Origin: Clostridiaceae bacterium
Lineage (GTDB): Bacteria > Cyanobacteriota > Vampirovibrionia > Gastranaerophilales > Gastranaerophilaceae
DNA length: 64,000 bases
Assembly: GCA_022641775.1 (NCBI GenBank)
Contig: JALCDS010000004.1
Location: 1 to 64,000 of the forward strand
Direction: 5' to 3'
Shown here: in pieces, positions 6,330 to 36,016 of the stretch
How the letters are laid out: each line of letters opens with the position of its first letter
Position numbering within the stretch: the stretch's first letter is position 1
Translations under genes and position numbers: made by a program
Notes under the pieces: model-generated
What the model saw: the letters and a program-made list of their open reading frames with translations, nothing else
What the model was told of the DNA's origin: nothing
Database searches by the model: none

Positions 6330-6427
6330 CTCCTAGTCTCGTAAGTACTACCAACTAAATTAAGCATTCCGACTTTAACGGCTGCGGACCAGTGGGTGAT
6401 TTTCGCACCTCTTTCCTTAAATTAGTT
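6330..6427 (-). ncRNA. Putative class-II-type cobalamin riboswitch in the nrdDG leader
   Basis: Seen in sequence: a closing stem pairs 6427-6416 with 6364-6353 (11 of 12 pairs). Inside it lie GGAAA, a hairpin GGTG/CACC with loop CGAAAAT (6409-6395), then TCCG/CGGA (6388-6368) around CAGCCGTTAAAGT, followed by AATGC. Downstream a hairpin TAGT/ACTA (6350-6334) carries the loop ACTTACGAG, and its 3' arm runs directly into the AGGAG ribosome-binding site (6334-6330). From memory, this order, including the ACGAG loop and the GGAAA and AATGC elements, matches short class-II cobalamin riboswitches. Translational control is inferred. Confidence 0.8.
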
Positions 6428-6432
6428 CTATT

Positions 6433-10671: not shown

Positions 10672-11040
10672 ATGAAAGAGGAATACACAAACCATTACAG
10701 ACGTTGGTACGACAAAGATCCTGTTGTATCTCAGGCGGTACAAACATTAGAACATTCTGATGATGAAACTCAGATTAAAATTGCTCTTAATTTAATCAAA
10801 ATTATCATTGAACACAATATTGAAGATGAACAATTTGAAGCAGTTGAAGATATTATTAATGCTGTTGGTTCAGGAATTGATGAGAATCAGAAAGGTCGTT
10901 GGTACGACTTGGATTCTACATTACATACTGCAATGAGTATGCTACAAAATTGTCCTGCTGATACTCAAAAGATTATTGCAAAAGAAATGGCAAAAATGGT
11001 TGTTGATAAAATCAAAACAGATGATGATGATAAAGATTAA
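10672..11040 (+). CDS. Small two-repeat protein in the fixCX operon, unknown
   Basis: A 122-residue acidic protein built from two copies of a motif of about 40 residues. The first starts RRWYDKDPVVSQAVQTL and the second GRWYDLDSTLHTAMSML; each then has a Gln-rich turn and an amphipathic helix (IALNLIKIIIEHNI, IAKEMAKMVVDKI). The C-terminus is DDDDKD. A clear AAGGAG site precedes it and it is cotranscribed with fixCX, which suggests a link to that electron-transfer module. The TAA stop overlaps the stop of the convergent GH77 gene (TTAA). No known family is recognised. Confidence 0.75.
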   Translation: MKEEYTNHYRRWYDKDPVVSQAVQTLEHSDDETQIKIALNLIKIIIEHNIEDEQFEAVEDIINAVGSGIDENQKGRWYDLDSTLHTAMSMLQNCPADTQKIIAKEMAKMVVDKIKTDDDDKD

Positions 11041-13001
11041 TCCTTTTCTTTGAGAATTTCAGCATAAGTGTTAAGTTTGTCAACTAAACTTGAAGTTCTA
11101 TCAGCATTTTCTCTTCTAACAACAATGGCTTCCTGAGAACTCTTATCATTTGCTTTGGCAGCCATATAATCATTCTTTGCGATAATTGCCTTTTTCAATA
11201 TTTCAGGCATATTCAAAGCGTTGGAAGTTGGATCTTCTAATGCTTTATAGTAAGTATCTTCAAAGTCATTATTTAATCTTAATTTCCAATTATCGGCGCT
11301 TTCTGTCCCGCCCTTGTTATATGTCTTATTTATGCCGAAAAAGTCTGCAAAAGAAATTTGAAGATTTTTTGTACTTCTGAACAATTCGGTAAATTTTGCC
11401 TTCAAAAGATTCCCTTTATCTTCAAGACTATTTTCAAATGCATATCGTTGAGCATCATGCATAGGATCAGCATGTAAATATCCTGCTAAATATTTTCTGT
11501 TCCACGCCTCATTTCCCCAATAAGCCATCCTTATTGCAGGTTCATTGTCATGAGAACCGACAAGCGCCCAGTTAGAACGATTCTGGATATTTTCGGCTCT
11601 ATCCCAAGCTAACTGAGAAATTCCCGGTAAATGCAATTTGTCATAATAAATAGACCTGAAAGCATCCGAGTCACTTCCAAGGTTTTCCCATACTGATTCA
11701 TTATAATCTATTCCATGAGATTTTAATGTTGGTAAAACTATTTTTTCTAATGCACTATGGAACTTATGCTTAGGATCATATTGATTCAAATTATTTAAAA
11801 ATCCACACTCGTACTTGTTATCTTTATTGTATATAAACGGGTCAATCAACCCTATGGCATGATCAATTCTAACATTACTATATCCATCGATTGCCGCTTC
11901 TATTTTAGCTTTCAACAACTTGCCCGATGCACCAAGGGTACCATCATCATTAAACAATTTGTCAGGGTCAAGCACAGGAATATTCCAGTATTGAGGGCCA
12001 TTATTCTCTCCGCCGGAAGGACAACCTAATCTCATATTTTTCAAAAAAGCTTCCTTATTTGCCCAAACATCCGCATTAGAAAATCCTACAAGCAAATCAT
12101 TTATATACCCAAAATTATTCGGTGACAGATGCGCCCTATTCCAATCCTTTATCTGTTTGTCTGCAATAAATTGAATAAAACAACTTCTATCCATGTTTGG
12201 AGAATATTCTTTAACAAGTTCGCTATAACGTTTTAAAGCAGTTTCATCTCCTGCTTTCAACAACGGTATAAGATTTGCATCAACTTCATTCCATTTACTG
12301 CAATCATCTGTCCTATATACCTTTGTTAAAACATCAAACATTGCTTCATTGACTAAATTTGCCATTCTCTTGTTCTTAAATATTTCAAAATCCTTATTCA
12401 AATCAACAGCTTCAGGATTTCCAAGTCTTAATTTATTCACAAAATTAAAATACGCTTCAGTCATAGCTCTATCTATATTTTTAAAGGAATTTTCATAATT
12501 TGCCATGTTATAATTTGCATCCGGAATTTGACTGGATTGTACATATCTTTTTACACTGTCTTCAGGCAATATCTTTGCATAGTTGCTCATTGATAAATCA
12601 GGTAAATTGATAAACAATTCGTTTTTAGAAAAAACACCGCTTTTGTATGGTGAAATAAATTCTCGTGAAATTTGTCCGCCGGGTCCTAACTGACAAGAAT
12701 TAAAGCCATGCAACTTCAAAAAATTAATAAAATTATCTGCACCCATAGAATAAGGATTTCCAACCCCTATATCACCTTTGTAATTGGTAAGTTTATGCCA
12801 TCTTTTTAAATGCGTTTTGTCACAAAGTGAAGGGAAACTTGTGCCATGAATAATCATAGCAACATTATTTACGCCCAATTCTTTTTCTGCTTTTACAATC
12901 GTGTCATGATAATCCGGCTCTTCTTCAGGTCTTAAACGCCTTTGGAAAGACAGATTGTTACGTTTATAACTATAATTATTCCCTACCTTTTGTATATACA
13001 T
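11037..13001 (-). CDS. 4-alpha-glucanotransferase-like protein (GH77)
   Basis: A 654-residue GH77-type protein. The nucleophile region is VRIDHAIGLIDPF, the acid/base region is WENLGSDSDAF (family consensus has Glu-Asp-Leu-Gly), and SHDNEPAI matches the third conserved site. LLVGFSNADVWANKEAF also matches the MalQ pattern. GH77 enzymes transfer alpha-1,4-glucan segments in glycogen or maltodextrin metabolism. The N-terminus (MYIQKVGNNYSYKRNNLSF) is not typical and resembles the N-terminal pattern of other proteins in this window. Divergence from MalQ makes the exact substrate uncertain. No clear ribosome-binding site was found. Confidence 0.8.
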   Translation of the reverse strand: MYIQKVGNNYSYKRNNLSFQRRLRPEEEPDYHDTIVKAEKELGVNNVAMIIHGTSFPSLCDKTHLKRWHKLTNYKGDIGVGNPYSMGADNFINFLKLHGFNSCQLGPGGQISREFISPYKSGVFSKNELFINLPDLSMSNYAKILPEDSVKRYVQSSQIPDANYNMANYENSFKNIDRAMTEAYFNFVNKLRLGNPEAVDLNKDFEIFKNKRMANLVNEAMFDVLTKVYRTDDCSKWNEVDANLIPLLKAGDETALKRYSELVKEYSPNMDRSCFIQFIADKQIKDWNRAHLSPNNFGYINDLLVGFSNADVWANKEAFLKNMRLGCPSGGENNGPQYWNIPVLDPDKLFNDDGTLGASGKLLKAKIEAAIDGYSNVRIDHAIGLIDPFIYNKDNKYECGFLNNLNQYDPKHKFHSALEKIVLPTLKSHGIDYNESVWENLGSDSDAFRSIYYDKLHLPGISQLAWDRAENIQNRSNWALVGSHDNEPAIRMAYWGNEAWNRKYLAGYLHADPMHDAQRYAFENSLEDKGNLLKAKFTELFRSTKNLQISFADFFGINKTYNKGGTESADNWKLRLNNDFEDTYYKALEDPTSNALNMPEILKKAIIAKNDYMAAKANDKSSQEAIVVRRENADRTSSLVDKLNTYAEILKEKD

Positions 13002-24558: not shown

Positions 24559-25464
24559 CTATTTAGAAGCTTCAGCAATACCATCCGCGCTGACAGTTGC
24601 AACCGGTTTAGCAATTGGTTCACCTTTTTTACGGCCTAACATTCCCTTTAAAGATTCCATTACACTATCTAAAACTTCGCCCATTTTGCCTTTCATATCG
24701 CCGGTTTTACCCAAAGTTTCATCTAAAAGGGCCAACACATTTTCCCTTACACCTGAAGTTTTATCCATAAGTGCACTTACAAATGCTTTACATTTTTCGT
24801 CATCTTTCAAAATATTTATAAATCTATCAACATGTTGATCAGCTTTATCTAGTTCAGGACTAACTTTTTCAGAAATTTTATCAAAAGTTTCAAGAATTTT
24901 ACCTCCAAAAACTGAATATTTATCTGTCAATTGAGCAACAAATTCTTTTAATTTGGCATCATCTTTAAGCGTTCCTAAAATTCTATCTACATATTCATTA
25001 ACATTTTTTATTTCGGGTTTAACTTTACCGGCAATATCACTAACAGAAGATTCAATAGAAGTAACAACCGGCGCAATTCTTTGTGCAAATTCTTTTATTT
25101 TCAATTTGTCATTAACGTCACTGACTGTGTCAACAATACCTTTGATTTTGGGCATAAGCTCTTTGGCTTCCTTTGTAATACCGTTTACTTTATGTAAGGC
25201 AATCCCAGAAGCTGCTAATGCAGCAATACCAGTAGCGCCGGCAACAATGCCTGCTGTTTTTGCTGTTTTAGAATTATTTTCTATTCTATCCAATTGAGAA
25301 GAAGAACTTGCTGTTGCAACATCTTTAGTTTCCGGTTTTGATTCTTCTTTTACGGGTTCCGGTTTTACTTCTTGAACTTGGTTTTGACCATAACTTTGAG
25401 GTTTAGTCAAAATATTATTATCTCCTGAAAAATTAACCATTGGTCTTATTGCTGAAATTGCCAT
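24559..25464 (-). CDS. Single-TM helical repeat protein with NFSG N-terminus, unknown
   Basis: A 301-residue protein that starts MAISAIRPMVNFSGD, followed by a Pro/Glu/Lys-rich spacer, one hydrophobic segment (AGIVAGATGIAALAASGIAL, about residues 70-90) and a long helical region. Two copies of a unit are visible: VKPEIKNVNEYVDRILGTLK with KEFVAQLTDK, and VSPELDKADQHVDRFINILK with KAFVSALMDK, about 55 residues apart. The end is GRKKGEPIAKPV. It may be an apolipoprotein- or spacer-like helical protein anchored in a membrane. Family unknown. An AAAGG site precedes the ATG. Confidence 0.65.
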   Translation of the reverse strand: MAISAIRPMVNFSGDNNILTKPQSYGQNQVQEVKPEPVKEESKPETKDVATASSSSQLDRIENNSKTAKTAGIVAGATGIAALAASGIALHKVNGITKEAKELMPKIKGIVDTVSDVNDKLKIKEFAQRIAPVVTSIESSVSDIAGKVKPEIKNVNEYVDRILGTLKDDAKLKEFVAQLTDKYSVFGGKILETFDKISEKVSPELDKADQHVDRFINILKDDEKCKAFVSALMDKTSGVRENVLALLDETLGKTGDMKGKMGEVLDSVMESLKGMLGRKKGEPIAKPVATVSADGIAEASK

Positions 25465-26444: not shown

Positions 26445-26813
26445 CTAGAATTGAAGACCTGCTTCACGAGCTGCATCAGCCAAAGCTTGAACACGACCGT
26501 GATACAAGAATCCTCCTCTGTCAAATACAACACATTCAACACCTGCTTTTTTAGCTTTTTGAGCAATTGTTGTTCCAACAAGTTTTGCAGCTTCAATATT
26601 ACCACCATGTGACAATTTTTCTCTCAAATCCTTGTCATTTGATGATGATGATGCGATTGTAACTTTGTTTACATCATCAATCAATTGAGCATAAATGTGT
26701 TTTGTACTTCTATAAACTGCCAATCTTGGAAATTCAGCTGTTCCTGACAACTTTACTCTCAAAGATTGATGTCTTTTTTGTACTTTTGGTTTTCTGATTT
26801 CTTGTTTAATCAT
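26445..26813 (-). CDS. rplR: 50S ribosomal protein L18
   Basis: A 122-residue 5S rRNA-binding protein. [18 protein letters not shown] and the C-terminal [24 protein letters not shown] are diagnostic. The start at 26813 follows AAAGGA. It is the last gene of the cluster: rpsE, rpmD, rplO and secY, which normally follow, are absent and a terminator comes instead. Confidence 0.97.
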
Positions 26814-26930
26814 TTTGATTTTCCTTTCTTTACCCAAACTTGCTTGATACCACTCAAGAGTTTATACGGGCTTTTTTGTTTTGCTATTTATATGGTAATT
26901 TTCATTTACAAACCGACAACGGTTTACGCA

Positions 26931-27470
26931 TTATTTTTTACCAGCTTTACCAGCTTTACGTCTGATGTATTCACCTTGATATCTTACACCCTTACCTTTA
27001 TATACTTCAGGTAAACGTTTTGCTCTGATTGCAGCGGCTACATCACCAACGGTTTGTTTGTTTGTACCTTTTACTGTAATTTCTACGTTCTTTTCAACTG
27101 AAATAGATATTCCTTCAGGTGGAGTAACCAAAACAGGGTGAGAATAACCTAACAATAAGTTTAAGTTCTTTCCTTCCATGTTTGCTCTGTAACCTACACC
27201 TTGGATTTCCAATTTCTTTTCAAATCCTTTTGTAACACCAATTACAGCGTTATGAATTAAAGTTCTTGTCAAACCGTGTAATGAACGAGATTGACGAGAA
27301 TCGTCAATTCTTGAAACAACGATATGACCGTTTTCATCTTTCAATGAAATTTCAGGTCTTACGTGTACAGATTCAGAACCCAAAGGTCCTTTTACAGTAA
27401 TATCGTGTTCTGATACTTTAAATTCAACTCCTTGCGGAATTTCAATAGGCATTCTACCAATTCTTGACAT
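26931..27470 (-). CDS. rplF: 50S ribosomal protein L6
   Basis: A 179-residue protein near the factor-binding site of the large subunit. It starts MSRIGRMPIEIPQGV and ends with the conserved RLPEVYKGKGVRYQGEYIRR region. It has AAAGGAG upstream. It begins a separate transcription segment because a terminator and an unrelated gene lie between rpsH and rplF; an AT-rich stretch with TATAAT near 27600 could be its promoter. Confidence 0.98.
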   Translation of the reverse strand: MSRIGRMPIEIPQGVEFKVSEHDITVKGPLGSESVHVRPEISLKDENGHIVVSRIDDSRQSRSLHGLTRTLIHNAVIGVTKGFEKKLEIQGVGYRANMEGKNLNLLLGYSHPVLVTPPEGISISVEKNVEITVKGTNKQTVGDVAAAIRAKRLPEVYKGKGVRYQGEYIRRKAGKAGKK

Positions 27471-27509
27471 TTTTCTTTTCTCCTTTTGGTATTAATAGTA
27501 ATTGAGGAT

Positions 27510-27600
27510 TTGCTATTTAAAATTATTCGTTTGGGTTATACGGCTAACATTAAATTCCCTTTCGGGTACCCTCGAGCCTTTCTACCAATTACGCTCTGAA
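27510..27600 (-). promoter_or_regulatory. Structured leader upstream of rplF
   Basis: The 200-nt spacer before rplF holds a compound hairpin on the minus strand: TTGG...CCAA and GGCT...AGCC arms enclose GAGGGTACCCG and AAAGGG. It lies between a possible TATAAT box and the ribosome-binding site. It could be a ribosomal-protein binding site for autoregulation; this is inference only. Confidence 0.4.
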
Positions 27601-27669
27601 ATTATATTAACTCAAATATTTTTTATAGTAAAGAGTTTTGATACAATTTGTTTACAATTATTTGTTTAA

Positions 27670-28356
27670 TTACTCTTTTATCAAAAAAACACTTTTTTCT
27701 TCAGGATTACCTTTTAGTAATTTTGAAAACATCAATTTTAATGGATTTTTACTGTATTCATTAATCTTTTTTAGATCTTTTATGTTCGCCTCTCCTATCT
27801 TCTCAAATTTATCTATAGATATTTCTTCCGGATAAACATATTCAATAGATTTTTTGTTTTGTTTGAGAAGTGGCGCTTTTGATGCAGACACTCCAGACAA
27901 ATATTTATATGAGCTTTTTAAAAAATTTTTGCAATATTTATCTAAATCCTCTATGTTTTCATAATTTATATTTTTTTCTTTTAGGTTTTCTTTTACCAAA
28001 TGCGTCATTTTGAATAAATCTTCTTGAGTTCTTACCTTTAATTTTGACTTATCTATATTTTGAGTTGAAAGTCTCAAAATAACAATATAATCAGATTTAT
28101 TGTTTATTTTTTCCAATAATTGAAGTTTTACATTTCTATTTTTGCAAAATTTTACAGAATTCCAATGCTTAAAAAAATTCATCAAATCAAACATAAAAAC
28201 GCCGGGTGCAAATTCCTTTTTTGTAATTTTGACTGCCCCATCTTTTAACATGGATTCGTATGCATCTTTACTTGTCAAATGGTAGAGATATCTTGGAATT
28301 ATATGTTTCCCCACAGAAACATAATTTATATTATTAATCGGACTTATTTTTAACAC
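27670..28356 (-). CDS. ADP-ribosyltransferase-like protein inserted in the spc operon
   Basis: A 228-residue protein starting at a GTG. After an N-terminus of the MLKISPINNINY type comes YLYHLTSKDAYESMLKDGAV, which resembles the first motif (H-T/S, then an Ile/Met-x3-Gly turn) of DarT/KptA/PARP-like ADP-ribosyltransferase folds. Near the end KSIEYVYPEEISIDKFEKIG looks like the last conserved strand with a Glu and the Ile-pattern of that fold. The match is by eye and weak. It lies between rpsH and rplF on the same strand, with a terminator upstream, so it is a separate unit and probably an insertion. There is no strong ribosome-binding site. Confidence 0.5.
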   Translation of the reverse strand: MLKISPINNINYVSVGKHIIPRYLYHLTSKDAYESMLKDGAVKITKKEFAPGVFMFDLMNFFKHWNSVKFCKNRNVKLQLLEKINNKSDYIVILRLSTQNIDKSKLKVRTQEDLFKMTHLVKENLKEKNINYENIEDLDKYCKNFLKSSYKYLSGVSASKAPLLKQNKKSIEYVYPEEISIDKFEKIGEANIKDLKKINEYSKNPLKLMFSKLLKGNPEEKSVFLIKE

Positions 28357-28424
28357 AGAATTTTAATACTTCACTTTCCTCATTAATTATAAAACAAAAT
28401 AAAGTTCTGCACTATTTATACATA

Positions 28425-28458
28425 AAAAAATAGCGAGTGAATACTCGCTATTTTTTGT
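28425..28458 (-). terminator. Intrinsic terminator directly after rpsH
   Basis: TAGCGAGT (28431-28438) pairs with ACTCGCTA (28443-28450), with A/T runs on both flanks (T7 on the minus strand). It splits the spc operon between rpsH and rplF. Confidence 0.9.
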
Positions 28459-28480
28459 TTTATATATTTAATTTAAGAAA

Positions 28481-28876
28481 CTACCAAACGTAGCAAAGTA
28501 CTTCGCCACCAATGTTTTCTTTTCTTGCTTTTCTATCGGTTAACAAACCTTTACTTGTTGAAACAATTGCAATACCAAGACCACCCAATACTTTAGGCAA
28601 GTTCTTTGATTTACAATAGCTTCTCAAACCAGGTTTAGAAACTCTTTGCATTTTTGTAATGATAGGTTGTTTCTTTTCATCATATTTCAATGTTATAACT
28701 AATAGCTTAAATTTACCTTCTTCTTTAACTTCATAGTCAGTTATAAAACCTTCATCTTTCAAAAGTTTTGCTAATTCAACTTTCAATTTTGAAGATGGCA
28801 TTTCAACTGTTTCATGAGAAACTGTGTTTGCATTTCTAATTCTTGTTAGCATATCTGCTATCGGATCTGTGTTCAT
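28481..28876 (-). CDS. rpsH: 30S ribosomal protein S8
   Basis: A 131-residue 16S rRNA-binding protein and, in many bacteria, repressor of the spc operon. It starts [17 protein letters not shown] and ends with [26 protein letters not shown]. The order rplE-rpsN-rpsH is canonical, but the gene after it is not rplF; a terminator follows at once. Confidence 0.98.
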
Positions 28877-29025
28877 CTTATTTTCCTTTTCAATTGCTAC
28901 TTATCTGAAGACCTCAGACAGTATAGTACATATAAATTGGGCGAGTTATTATCGTTTTCGCATCAAAATCGGAGCGTACAGCCACAACATTCCCAATAAT
29001 AGGATATTCCGATTTTTTGTTTAAA

Positions 29026-35380: not shown

Positions 35381-36016
35381 TTAATTCCATTTTGTTCTTG
35401 TTGGAACGATTGTTACCAATCTACCGTCAGAACCAGGAACTGAACCTTTAATTAAAACTAATCTGTTATCAGCATCAACTTTAACAAGTTTCAATTTTGT
35501 AATTGTAACTCTTTCGTTACCCATGTTACCGGCCATTCTCTTACCTTTGATAACACGTGAAGGAGTTGTACCAGCACCAATTGAACCAGGTTCTCTGTGG
35601 TTTTTTGAACCGTGACCCATAGGTCCTCTTGAGAAGTTGTGTCTCTTTACTGTACCTTGGAATCCTTTACCAATTGAAGTACCAGTTACATCAACTTTTT
35701 CAACGCTATCAAGAACTGAAAGAGCAACTTCATCCCCTACTTTGTAATTTTCAGGATTTTCTACTCTGAATTCTTGTAAGTGTCTGTAATTTTCTAAATT
35801 ATTTTTCTTAAAATGACCAATTTCAGCCTTTGTCAAATGTTTTTCTTTTGCTGCAATTGTTCCAACCTGTATAGCATTGTATCCGTCTTTTGCAACAGTT
35901 TTAACTTGAGTTACAACCATCTTGTCAACTTTTACAACGGTAACAGGGATTGCCAAACCTTGTTCATCAAAGATTTGTGTCATTCCTAGTTTCTTTCCTA
36001 TTACACCTAGTGTCAT
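35381..36016 (-). CDS. rplC: 50S ribosomal protein L3
   Basis: A 211-residue early assembly protein near the peptidyl-transferase centre. It starts MTLGVIGKKLGMTQIFDEQG and contains FQGTVKRHNFSRGPMGHGSK. ATG at 36016 has AAAGG about 8 nt upstream; an upstream in-frame extension to 36055 is not supported. The 211-nt spacer before it carries three hairpins. Confidence 0.98.
   Translation of the reverse strand: MTLGVIGKKLGMTQIFDEQGLAIPVTVVKVDKMVVTQVKTVAKDGYNAIQVGTIAAKEKHLTKAEIGHFKKNNLENYRHLQEFRVENPENYKVGDEVALSVLDSVEKVDVTGTSIGKGFQGTVKRHNFSRGPMGHGSKNHREPGSIGAGTTPSRVIKGKRMAGNMGNERVTITKLKLVKVDADNRLVLIKGSVPGSDGRLVTIVPTRTKWN

What the first reader, a model, noticed from the sequence alone, without database searches (positions are those of the whole stretch)
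27471..28480. spc ribosomal operon interrupted by a terminator and an ADP-ribosyltransferase-like gene
Between rpsH and rplF, almost always adjacent in bacteria, there is a strong terminator at 28425-28458, a 228-residue unrelated gene, and a structured leader. The inserted protein has a YHLTS...MLKDG pattern and a late Ile/Glu strand reminiscent of DarT/KptA-like ADP-ribosyltransferase folds, plus the MLKIS-type N-terminus seen in other lineage proteins.
Basis: partly seen in the sequence, partly recalled or inferred. Interest (0 to 1): 0.6.

Follow-up and report, generated by a model that had tools for sequence, protein, structure and literature searches.

The report
Accessory enzyme gene beside new L6 leader
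A stray gene, probably an ADP-ribosyltransferase-fold enzyme found only patchily in this family of gut bacteria, sits between two ribosomal-protein genes that are normally neighbours, and the "structured leader" after it is a previously unlisted regulatory RNA that belongs to the ribosomal gene rplF (protein L6), not to the insert.

Summary
In detail: rpsH, a 14-bp-stem terminator, an unrelated 228-aa ORF, then a structured leader and rplF. The three parts have separate histories.

(1) The ORF belongs to an undescribed protein family (80 of 288 genomes of this bacterial family, 0-3 copies, scattered, no conserved neighbour). Evidence converges on an ADP-ribosyltransferase (ART) fold: confident AlphaFold model, PDB matches mostly ARTs (but E>=0.095), sub-threshold Pfam hits to Tox-ART-HYD1, DarT, KptA and PARP, conserved H26/E172.

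(2) The insertion is one of several unrelated ones. In this family rpsN-rpsH and rpsH-rplF are recurrent breakpoints. The terminator goes with insertions: 5/5 genomes with >700 bp inserts, 4/49 without.

(3) The leader is ancestral and belongs to rplF: a covarying hairpin with loop AAUUGGUAGAAA whose GGUA can pair with UACC just before the Shine-Dalgarno site. A covariance model finds about one copy per genome in 165 of 288 genomes; all 30 best hits lie directly upstream of rplF. None is found outside the family; Rfam has no match.

Best reading: a leader for autogenous control of L6, one of several gene-by-gene leaders, making rplF portable and the junction tolerant of cargo such as the ART gene. 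Ligand and ART activity are untested.

The parts
28481..28876 (-). rpsH (ribosomal protein S8)
   Evidence: ORF listing; homologues in 53 of 59 genomes searched, own included
28897..28926 (-). core of a conserved rpsH leader: CUAUACUG-stem-AAGUAG (family form [CUA/GGA/GAA]UACUGC-stem-GUAAGU[AG/CC/UC])
   Evidence: upstream sequences of rpsH in relatives; consensus fold beats 15/15 column shuffles (script later crashed)
28425..28456 (-). intrinsic terminator after rpsH (palindromic, could act on both strands)
   Evidence: comparable terminators in 5/5 genomes with inserts >700 bp, 4/49 without
28386..28391 (-). TATAAT, candidate -10 box for the inserted gene (no good -35 seen)
   Evidence: sequence inspection; inference
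27670..28356 (-). 228-aa ART-fold protein gene, GTG start; H26, T28, Y33, R109, E172 conserved
27601..27606 (-). TATAAT, candidate -10 box directly 5' of the rplF leader hairpin
   Evidence: sequence; detached rplF in G027 and G062 has TTGACA..TATAAA/TATATT at the same place
27569..27601 (-). rplF leader hairpin, loop GTAATTGGTAGAAAG
   Evidence: alignments and covariation; model R1 hit at 36.8 bits
27583..27586 (-). loop GGUA, 5' side of the proposed pseudoknot
   Evidence: GGUA loops have UACY before the SD in 40/40, GGCA/GACA loops in 0/8; position
27480..27491 (-). UACCAA (27486-27491, 3' side of the proposed pseudoknot) abutting Shine-Dalgarno AAGGAG (27480-27485)
26931..27470 (-). rplF (ribosomal protein L6)
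26832..26871 (-). separate conserved rplR (L18) leader, GCCC..AAACY..CUUGA-loop-UCAAG..RGUUU-GGGU
   Evidence: covariation score 0.232 against 0.135 shuffled, 0/500; 96.6% of cells paired
26445..26813 (-). rplR (L18), from the likely ATG; followed by nadK, not rpsE

Best explanation
In this family of Gastranaerophilales-type gut bacteria several genes of the S10-spc cluster carry their own structured RNA leaders, so genes such as rplF can be expressed and regulated on their own. The element before rplF is a cis-regulatory leader: a hairpin of about 7 bp with a fixed 15-nt loop containing AAUUGGUAGAAA, whose GGUA can pair with UACC just 5' of the Shine-Dalgarno site, forming a pseudoknot that would block ribosome loading. 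Most likely excess L6 binds the hairpin and stabilises the pseudoknot, repressing its own translation. Because rplF brings its own promoter and leader wherever it goes, the rpsH-rplF junction tolerates insertions. In this species an accessory ART-fold enzyme gene landed there, preceded by a terminator that ends rpsH transcription. Shown: the conserved hairpin, its covariation, its specificity for rplF, its family-wide spread, the recurrent insertions and the patchy ART-like family. Inferred: pseudoknot formation, repression, L6 as ligand, promoter, ART catalysis, and the causal link between leaders and insertion tolerance.
For: Leader: covariation 0/500 shuffles on 20 and on 40 sequences; covariance model finds about one site per genome in 165/288 family genomes; 30/30 best hits lie 26-77 nt upstream of rplF on its strand, as do the weaker hits checked, apart from two in other sequence at E>0.005; no hit outside the family in order- and phylum-wide samples; loop GGUA co-occurs with UACY before the SD, 40/40 against 0/8; no Rfam leader match in the window or 120 kb of relatives. 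Portability: the leader stays with rplF when rplF is detached from rpsH (G027, G062, G179, G113) or separated by unrelated genes (G029, G078, G065, G104, G096). ART: pLDDT 87, pTM 0.82; PDB hits led by KptA/Tpt1, DarT, NAD glycohydrolase, DUF952; ART Pfam families hit by several homologues; conserved H26, R109, E172.
Against: No expression, binding or transcript data. L6 as ligand is inferred only from 'the gene directly downstream'; similarity to the L6 site in 23S rRNA could not be tested because 23S is cut off or missing in the assemblies tried. About 40% of family genomes give no hit at E<=0.1. The GGCA-loop variants lack the pseudoknot partner. Foldseek E-values for the ART assignment are weak (>=0.095), TM-scores about 0.3, and the window protein itself has no ART Pfam hit. 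Insertions also occur at rpsN-rpsH and rplF-rplR, so leaders are a permissive condition at most.
Confidence: 0.6

Rival explanations
1. The rplF leader is real but senses something other than L6: another ribosomal protein, a small molecule, or a trans-acting RNA.
For: A hairpin plus pseudoknot next to the SD is also how small riboswitches work; the loop is very invariant.
Against: Strict and exclusive association with rplF; the rplR gene downstream has its own leader, leaving rplF as the only constant target.
Confidence: 0.25
2. Terminator, ART gene and leader are one mobile package that inserted together.
For: They lie together between rpsH and rplF in the window, and a similar terminator accompanies other inserts.
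Against: The leader is present before rplF in 165/288 genomes, mostly with no insert. ART homologues elsewhere lie beside unrelated genes, and no flanking repeats typical of an element stood out.
Confidence: 0.02
3. The inserted protein is not an active ART: either a degenerate ART fold used for binding, or an unrelated fold.
For: Foldseek E>=0.095 and TM about 0.3; no ART Pfam hit for the window protein.
Against: The best PDB matches are mostly ARTs; Tox-ART-HYD1 (best 2.4e-4), DarT, KptA and PARP are hit by homologues; H26, R109 and E172 are near-invariant.
Confidence: 0.2
4. The arrangement in this genome is an assembly error (a chimeric join in a draft genome).
For: Only one genome of this species was available; it is a 41-contig draft.
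Against: The junction is inside a 98-kb contig, the rplF leader is intact directly after the insert, and other genomes show independent inserts at the same junction.
Confidence: 0.05

Closest known systems
Ribosomal leaders (r-leaders) of bacteria, e.g. the 20 of Eckert and Weinberg 2020 (PMC7247131)
   Same: Conserved covarying structure always upstream of an r-protein gene, near the SD; several known r-leaders are single hairpins restricted to one lineage.
   Different: None of that paper's 20 new leaders is for L6/rplF, and its main text has no L6 or S8 r-leader entry (the supplementary list of earlier leaders was not read). This one carries a proposed pseudoknot to the SD-proximal UACC and was found only in this family.
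E. coli spc operon control by S8
   Same: Translational feedback within the same gene cluster; the rpsH leader here (GGAUACUGC..GUAAGUCC) recalls the S8 site (recalled from memory, a lead only).
   Different: In E. coli one S8 site controls the operon (general knowledge); here rpsH, rplF and rplR each have a separate leader.
Tox-ART-HYD1 (PF15633), polymorphic-toxin ART
   Same: Most frequent Pfam match of the homologues (6 of 24 members, best 2.4e-4).
   Different: The window protein has no hit, no delivery domain, and homologues have no conserved immunity-like neighbour.
DarT (PF14487) and KptA/Tpt1 (PF01885)
   Same: Among the top structural matches and weak Pfam hits.
   Different: No DarG-like macrodomain neighbour or any other conserved neighbour; an extra helical insertion, residues about 111-166.

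Membership tests
Ribosomal leader (r-leader) | RNA structure supported by covariation | tested here: met
   0/500 shuffles reach the score; 95% of cells paired; slid controls collapse
Ribosomal leader (r-leader) | Consistently upstream of r-protein genes | tested here: met
   30/30 best model hits are upstream of rplF; about one per genome
Ribosomal leader (r-leader) | Transcribed with the gene and binds the encoded r-protein | not testable with these tools
   no transcript or binding data
Ribosomal leader (r-leader) | Mimicry of the rRNA site of the ligand (not obligatory) | not tested
   23S rRNA cut off or absent in the genomes tried
ADP-ribosyltransferase superfamily | H..(Y)..E catalytic pattern on strands in the expected order | tested here: met
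   YH26xT, GVF..[DE]L.NF, IE172Y: H26 and E172 near-invariant; strands 23-29, 52-56 and 171-175
ADP-ribosyltransferase superfamily | ART fold by structure comparison | tested here: inconclusive
   Best PDB matches mostly ARTs but E>=0.095, TM about 0.3
ADP-ribosyltransferase superfamily | NAD-dependent transferase activity | not testable with these tools
   needs an assay
DarT toxin of DarTG | Adjacent DarG macrodomain antitoxin | tested here: not met
   no conserved neighbour in 22 loci; window neighbours are ribosomal genes
DarT toxin of DarTG | Pfam DarT match | tested here: not met
   window protein none; 1-3 homologues at E about 0.04
Tox-ART-HYD1 | Pfam PF15633 match | tested here: inconclusive
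   6/24 homologues, best 2.4e-4; window protein none
KptA/Tpt1 RNA 2'-phosphotransferase | Tpt1 active-site residues and phosphotransferase activity | not tested
   only weak fold and Pfam similarity seen

The most novel reading that the evidence does not exclude
In one family of non-photosynthetic relatives of cyanobacteria, operon-level control of the S10-spc ribosomal cluster has been replaced by gene-by-gene RNA leaders (at least rpsH, rplF and rplR, probably rplN), including a first leader dedicated to L6 with an SD-proximal pseudoknot. This modularity would have released one of the most conserved gene orders in bacteria, turning junctions such as rpsH-rplF into recurrent insertion sites for accessory genes, here a new ART family.
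Probability: 0.45. Interest if true: 0.7.

Novelty: new variant of a known kind. Interest (0 to 1): 0.52.

Why it matters
A leader for L6, if confirmed, adds a new ligand to ribosomal autoregulation and gives a compact hairpin-pseudoknot system to study. More broadly, gene-by-gene leaders would explain how a near-universal gene order can come apart without losing control of protein amounts, a question that can be tested by comparing families with and without the leaders. The ART gene adds an unannotated, family-restricted enzyme group in common gut bacteria.

Tried and rejected
I first assumed that the terminator after rpsH was ancestral like the leader; counting showed it goes with insertions. 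A tRNA or known Rfam element in the leader was rejected. The whole leader as a dispersed genomic repeat was rejected: no significant second copy in the genome, and the loop motif occurs once. Viral-contig homologues of the ART protein: none found, with strict patterns only. A TA or defence pair: no conserved neighbour, no convincing PADLOC match. A lineage-wide N-terminal '[VILP]xFxG' signature was not clearly enriched in the genes at hand (58 of 788 proteins in the first 30-residue bin, other bins 26-60), so it is not claimed. Consensus-fold scans of all intergenic regions timed out or crashed; only rplF and rpsH gave usable results there, and rplR was then done by hand. The alignment of 24 homologues was too diverse for pattern scans; seven close ones worked. 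Looking for a relative of the L6 site of 23S rRNA failed for lack of 23S sequence.

Full report
What is there. On the minus strand the window reads rpsJ...rplE-rpsN-rpsH, a terminator (28425-28456), a GTG-start ORF of 228 aa (27670-28356), 199 nt of spacer, rplF, rplR and then nadK. The terminator scan by itself is not above chance (one found, 1.1 expected), but the stem is 14 pairs long with a T run and directly follows rpsH. The leader folded alone is unremarkable (z = -1.35), so comparative evidence was needed.

The protein. No Pfam or NCBIfam family matches it convincingly. It is single-copy in its own genome, yet related proteins occur in 80 of 288 genomes of the same taxonomic family and 23 of 41 genera, often 1-3 copies, most at roughly 25-50% identity. 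Many of the records found in GTDB are named Candidatus Gastranaerophilales. The alignment shows YH.T....Y..ML..G, GVF...[DE]L.NF.K.W, [IV]V.L[RK]IPT..L....L..R, and IEYIY...I....KIG; T28, R109 and E172 are invariant and H26, Y33 nearly so in one alignment of 24. AlphaFold on an alignment of 22 gives pLDDT 87.3 and pTM 0.82. The PDB matches are led by KptA/Tpt1, streptococcal NAD glycohydrolase, DarT, cholera toxin A and a DUF952 protein, all ADP-ribosyltransferase-type folds as far as I know them, but with E-values of 0.095 and above and TM-scores near 0.3. Homologues hit Tox-ART-HYD1 (6 of 24, best 2.4e-4), DarT (3), KptA (2) and PARP (1) weakly. Each signal is weak; together they favour an ART fold. 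There is no conserved partner gene in 22 neighbourhoods, so a DarTG-like toxin-antitoxin pair is not supported. No relative was found in viral contigs with the strict patterns used.

The junction. In sampled genomes of the family, the stretch rpsJ to rpsN is essentially unbroken, while rpsN-rpsH, rpsH-rplF and rplF-rplR are often broken. Of 30 informative family genomes, 26 keep rpsH-rplF within 450 nt. The exceptions are the window (ART gene), G029 (a methyltransferase-like ORF), and G027 and G062, the two other genomes of the same genus, in which rplF lies beside unrelated genes. Further inserts or detachments appear in G078 (an XRE-type regulator and a small ORF), G065 (a transposase-like ORF), G104, G096, G179 and G113. 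The ART gene itself was seen at this junction only in the window. A terminator right after rpsH is present in 5/5 genomes with inserts over 700 bp and in 4/49 without. It therefore goes with insertion and is not ancestral.

The leader. Directly upstream of rplF most family genomes carry a hairpin with an almost invariant 15-nt loop containing AAUUGGUAGAAA and a stem that changes sequence but keeps pairing. On 20 sequences the covariation score is 0.919 against 0.398 in shuffles (0/500), and sliding one strand by one column drops it to about 0.3. Forty sequences give the same picture, though the count of pairs with double changes alone is not exceptional there. A covariance model found a match in 165 of 288 family genomes, almost always one per genome of about 2 Mb. 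All 30 of the best hits lie 26-77 nt upstream of rplF on the same strand. Four further sites checked (G017 second site, G048 C13, G195, G217) are also upstream of rplF; two with E above 0.005 are not, and are taken as chance. No member of another family was hit in an order-wide and a phylum-wide sample. In the window's own genome the loop motif occurs once. Rfam has no match to these leaders in the window or in 120 kb of relatives.

The proposed pseudoknot. Among 48 distinct leaders, all 40 with loop GGUA have UACC or UACU just before the Shine-Dalgarno site, and none of the 8 with GGCA or GACA does. In the window these are GGUA 27583-27586 and UACCAA 27486-27491, next to AAGGAG 27480-27485. 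The sequences are related, so the counts are not independent, and the pairing is inferred.

How it probably works. Detached rplF genes keep the leader and have promoter-like boxes just upstream of it, and the window has TATAAT immediately 5' of the stem. The simplest model is a transcript that starts near the hairpin; L6 binds it, the pseudoknot forms over the ribosome-binding site and translation falls. L6 is the best guess because rplR downstream has a different covarying leader of its own (0/500 shuffles) and rplF is the only constant target. Similarity to the L6 site on 23S rRNA could not be tested since 23S is cut off or missing in the genomes tried. A conserved core upstream of rpsH recalls an S8 site; that is a lead only.

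Comparison with the literature. The survey of Eckert and Weinberg (PMC7247131) describes 20 r-leaders, none for L6, and its main text mentions no L6 or S8 r-leader; its supplementary list of earlier leaders was not available to me. Searches of the open library for riboswitches or leaders in this lineage found nothing relevant.

Verdict. The more interesting part is the 'structured leader': a new, lineage-restricted regulatory RNA specific to rplF, and probably one of a set that makes this ribosomal cluster modular. What is demonstrated is the conserved structure and its location; ligand, mechanism and the ART activity remain to be tested.

Noticed in passing
window 26832-26871 (-): A second covarying leader, directly upstream of rplR (L18), GCCC..AAACY..CUUGA-loop-UCAAG..RGUUU-GGGU; also in many relatives and without an Rfam match.
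   Followed up: partly
window 28897-28926 (-); L073, L077, L082, L156 upstream of rpsH: rpsH leader with an outer helix that seems to covary (CUA/UAG, GGA/UCC, GAA/UUC) around UACUGC...GUAAGU; may mimic the S8 site of 16S rRNA.
   Followed up: partly
window, roughly the 100 nt upstream of rplN (start 30752, -) and of rplC (start near 36010, -): Conserved motifs upstream of rplN (ACAUUAYC..GAGUAAUGAGAGG) and rplC (GUAGCGCUCGCAAGAGAAAAUGC) in several relatives, probably further leaders.
   Followed up: no
window 6354-6432 (-): AdoCbl-II (cobalamin) riboswitch, 47.5 bits, above the Rfam cut-off.
   Followed up: no
L083, L091, L170 (gaps next to rpsH): Small XRE-type regulator genes recur at ribosomal-cluster breakpoints in different genomes, as if a small mobile module favoured these sites.
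   Followed up: no
L037, L049, L050, between rplF and rplR: In three genomes a roughly 100-aa ORF with a similar start (..VSFGx / NVTFSG) lies between rplF and rplR.
   Followed up: no
window 24559-25464 (-), 11037-13001 (-); L112-L123 neighbours: Many lineage proteins share an N-terminal [VILP]xFxG-like motif; enrichment was not clear in the genes at hand.
   Followed up: partly
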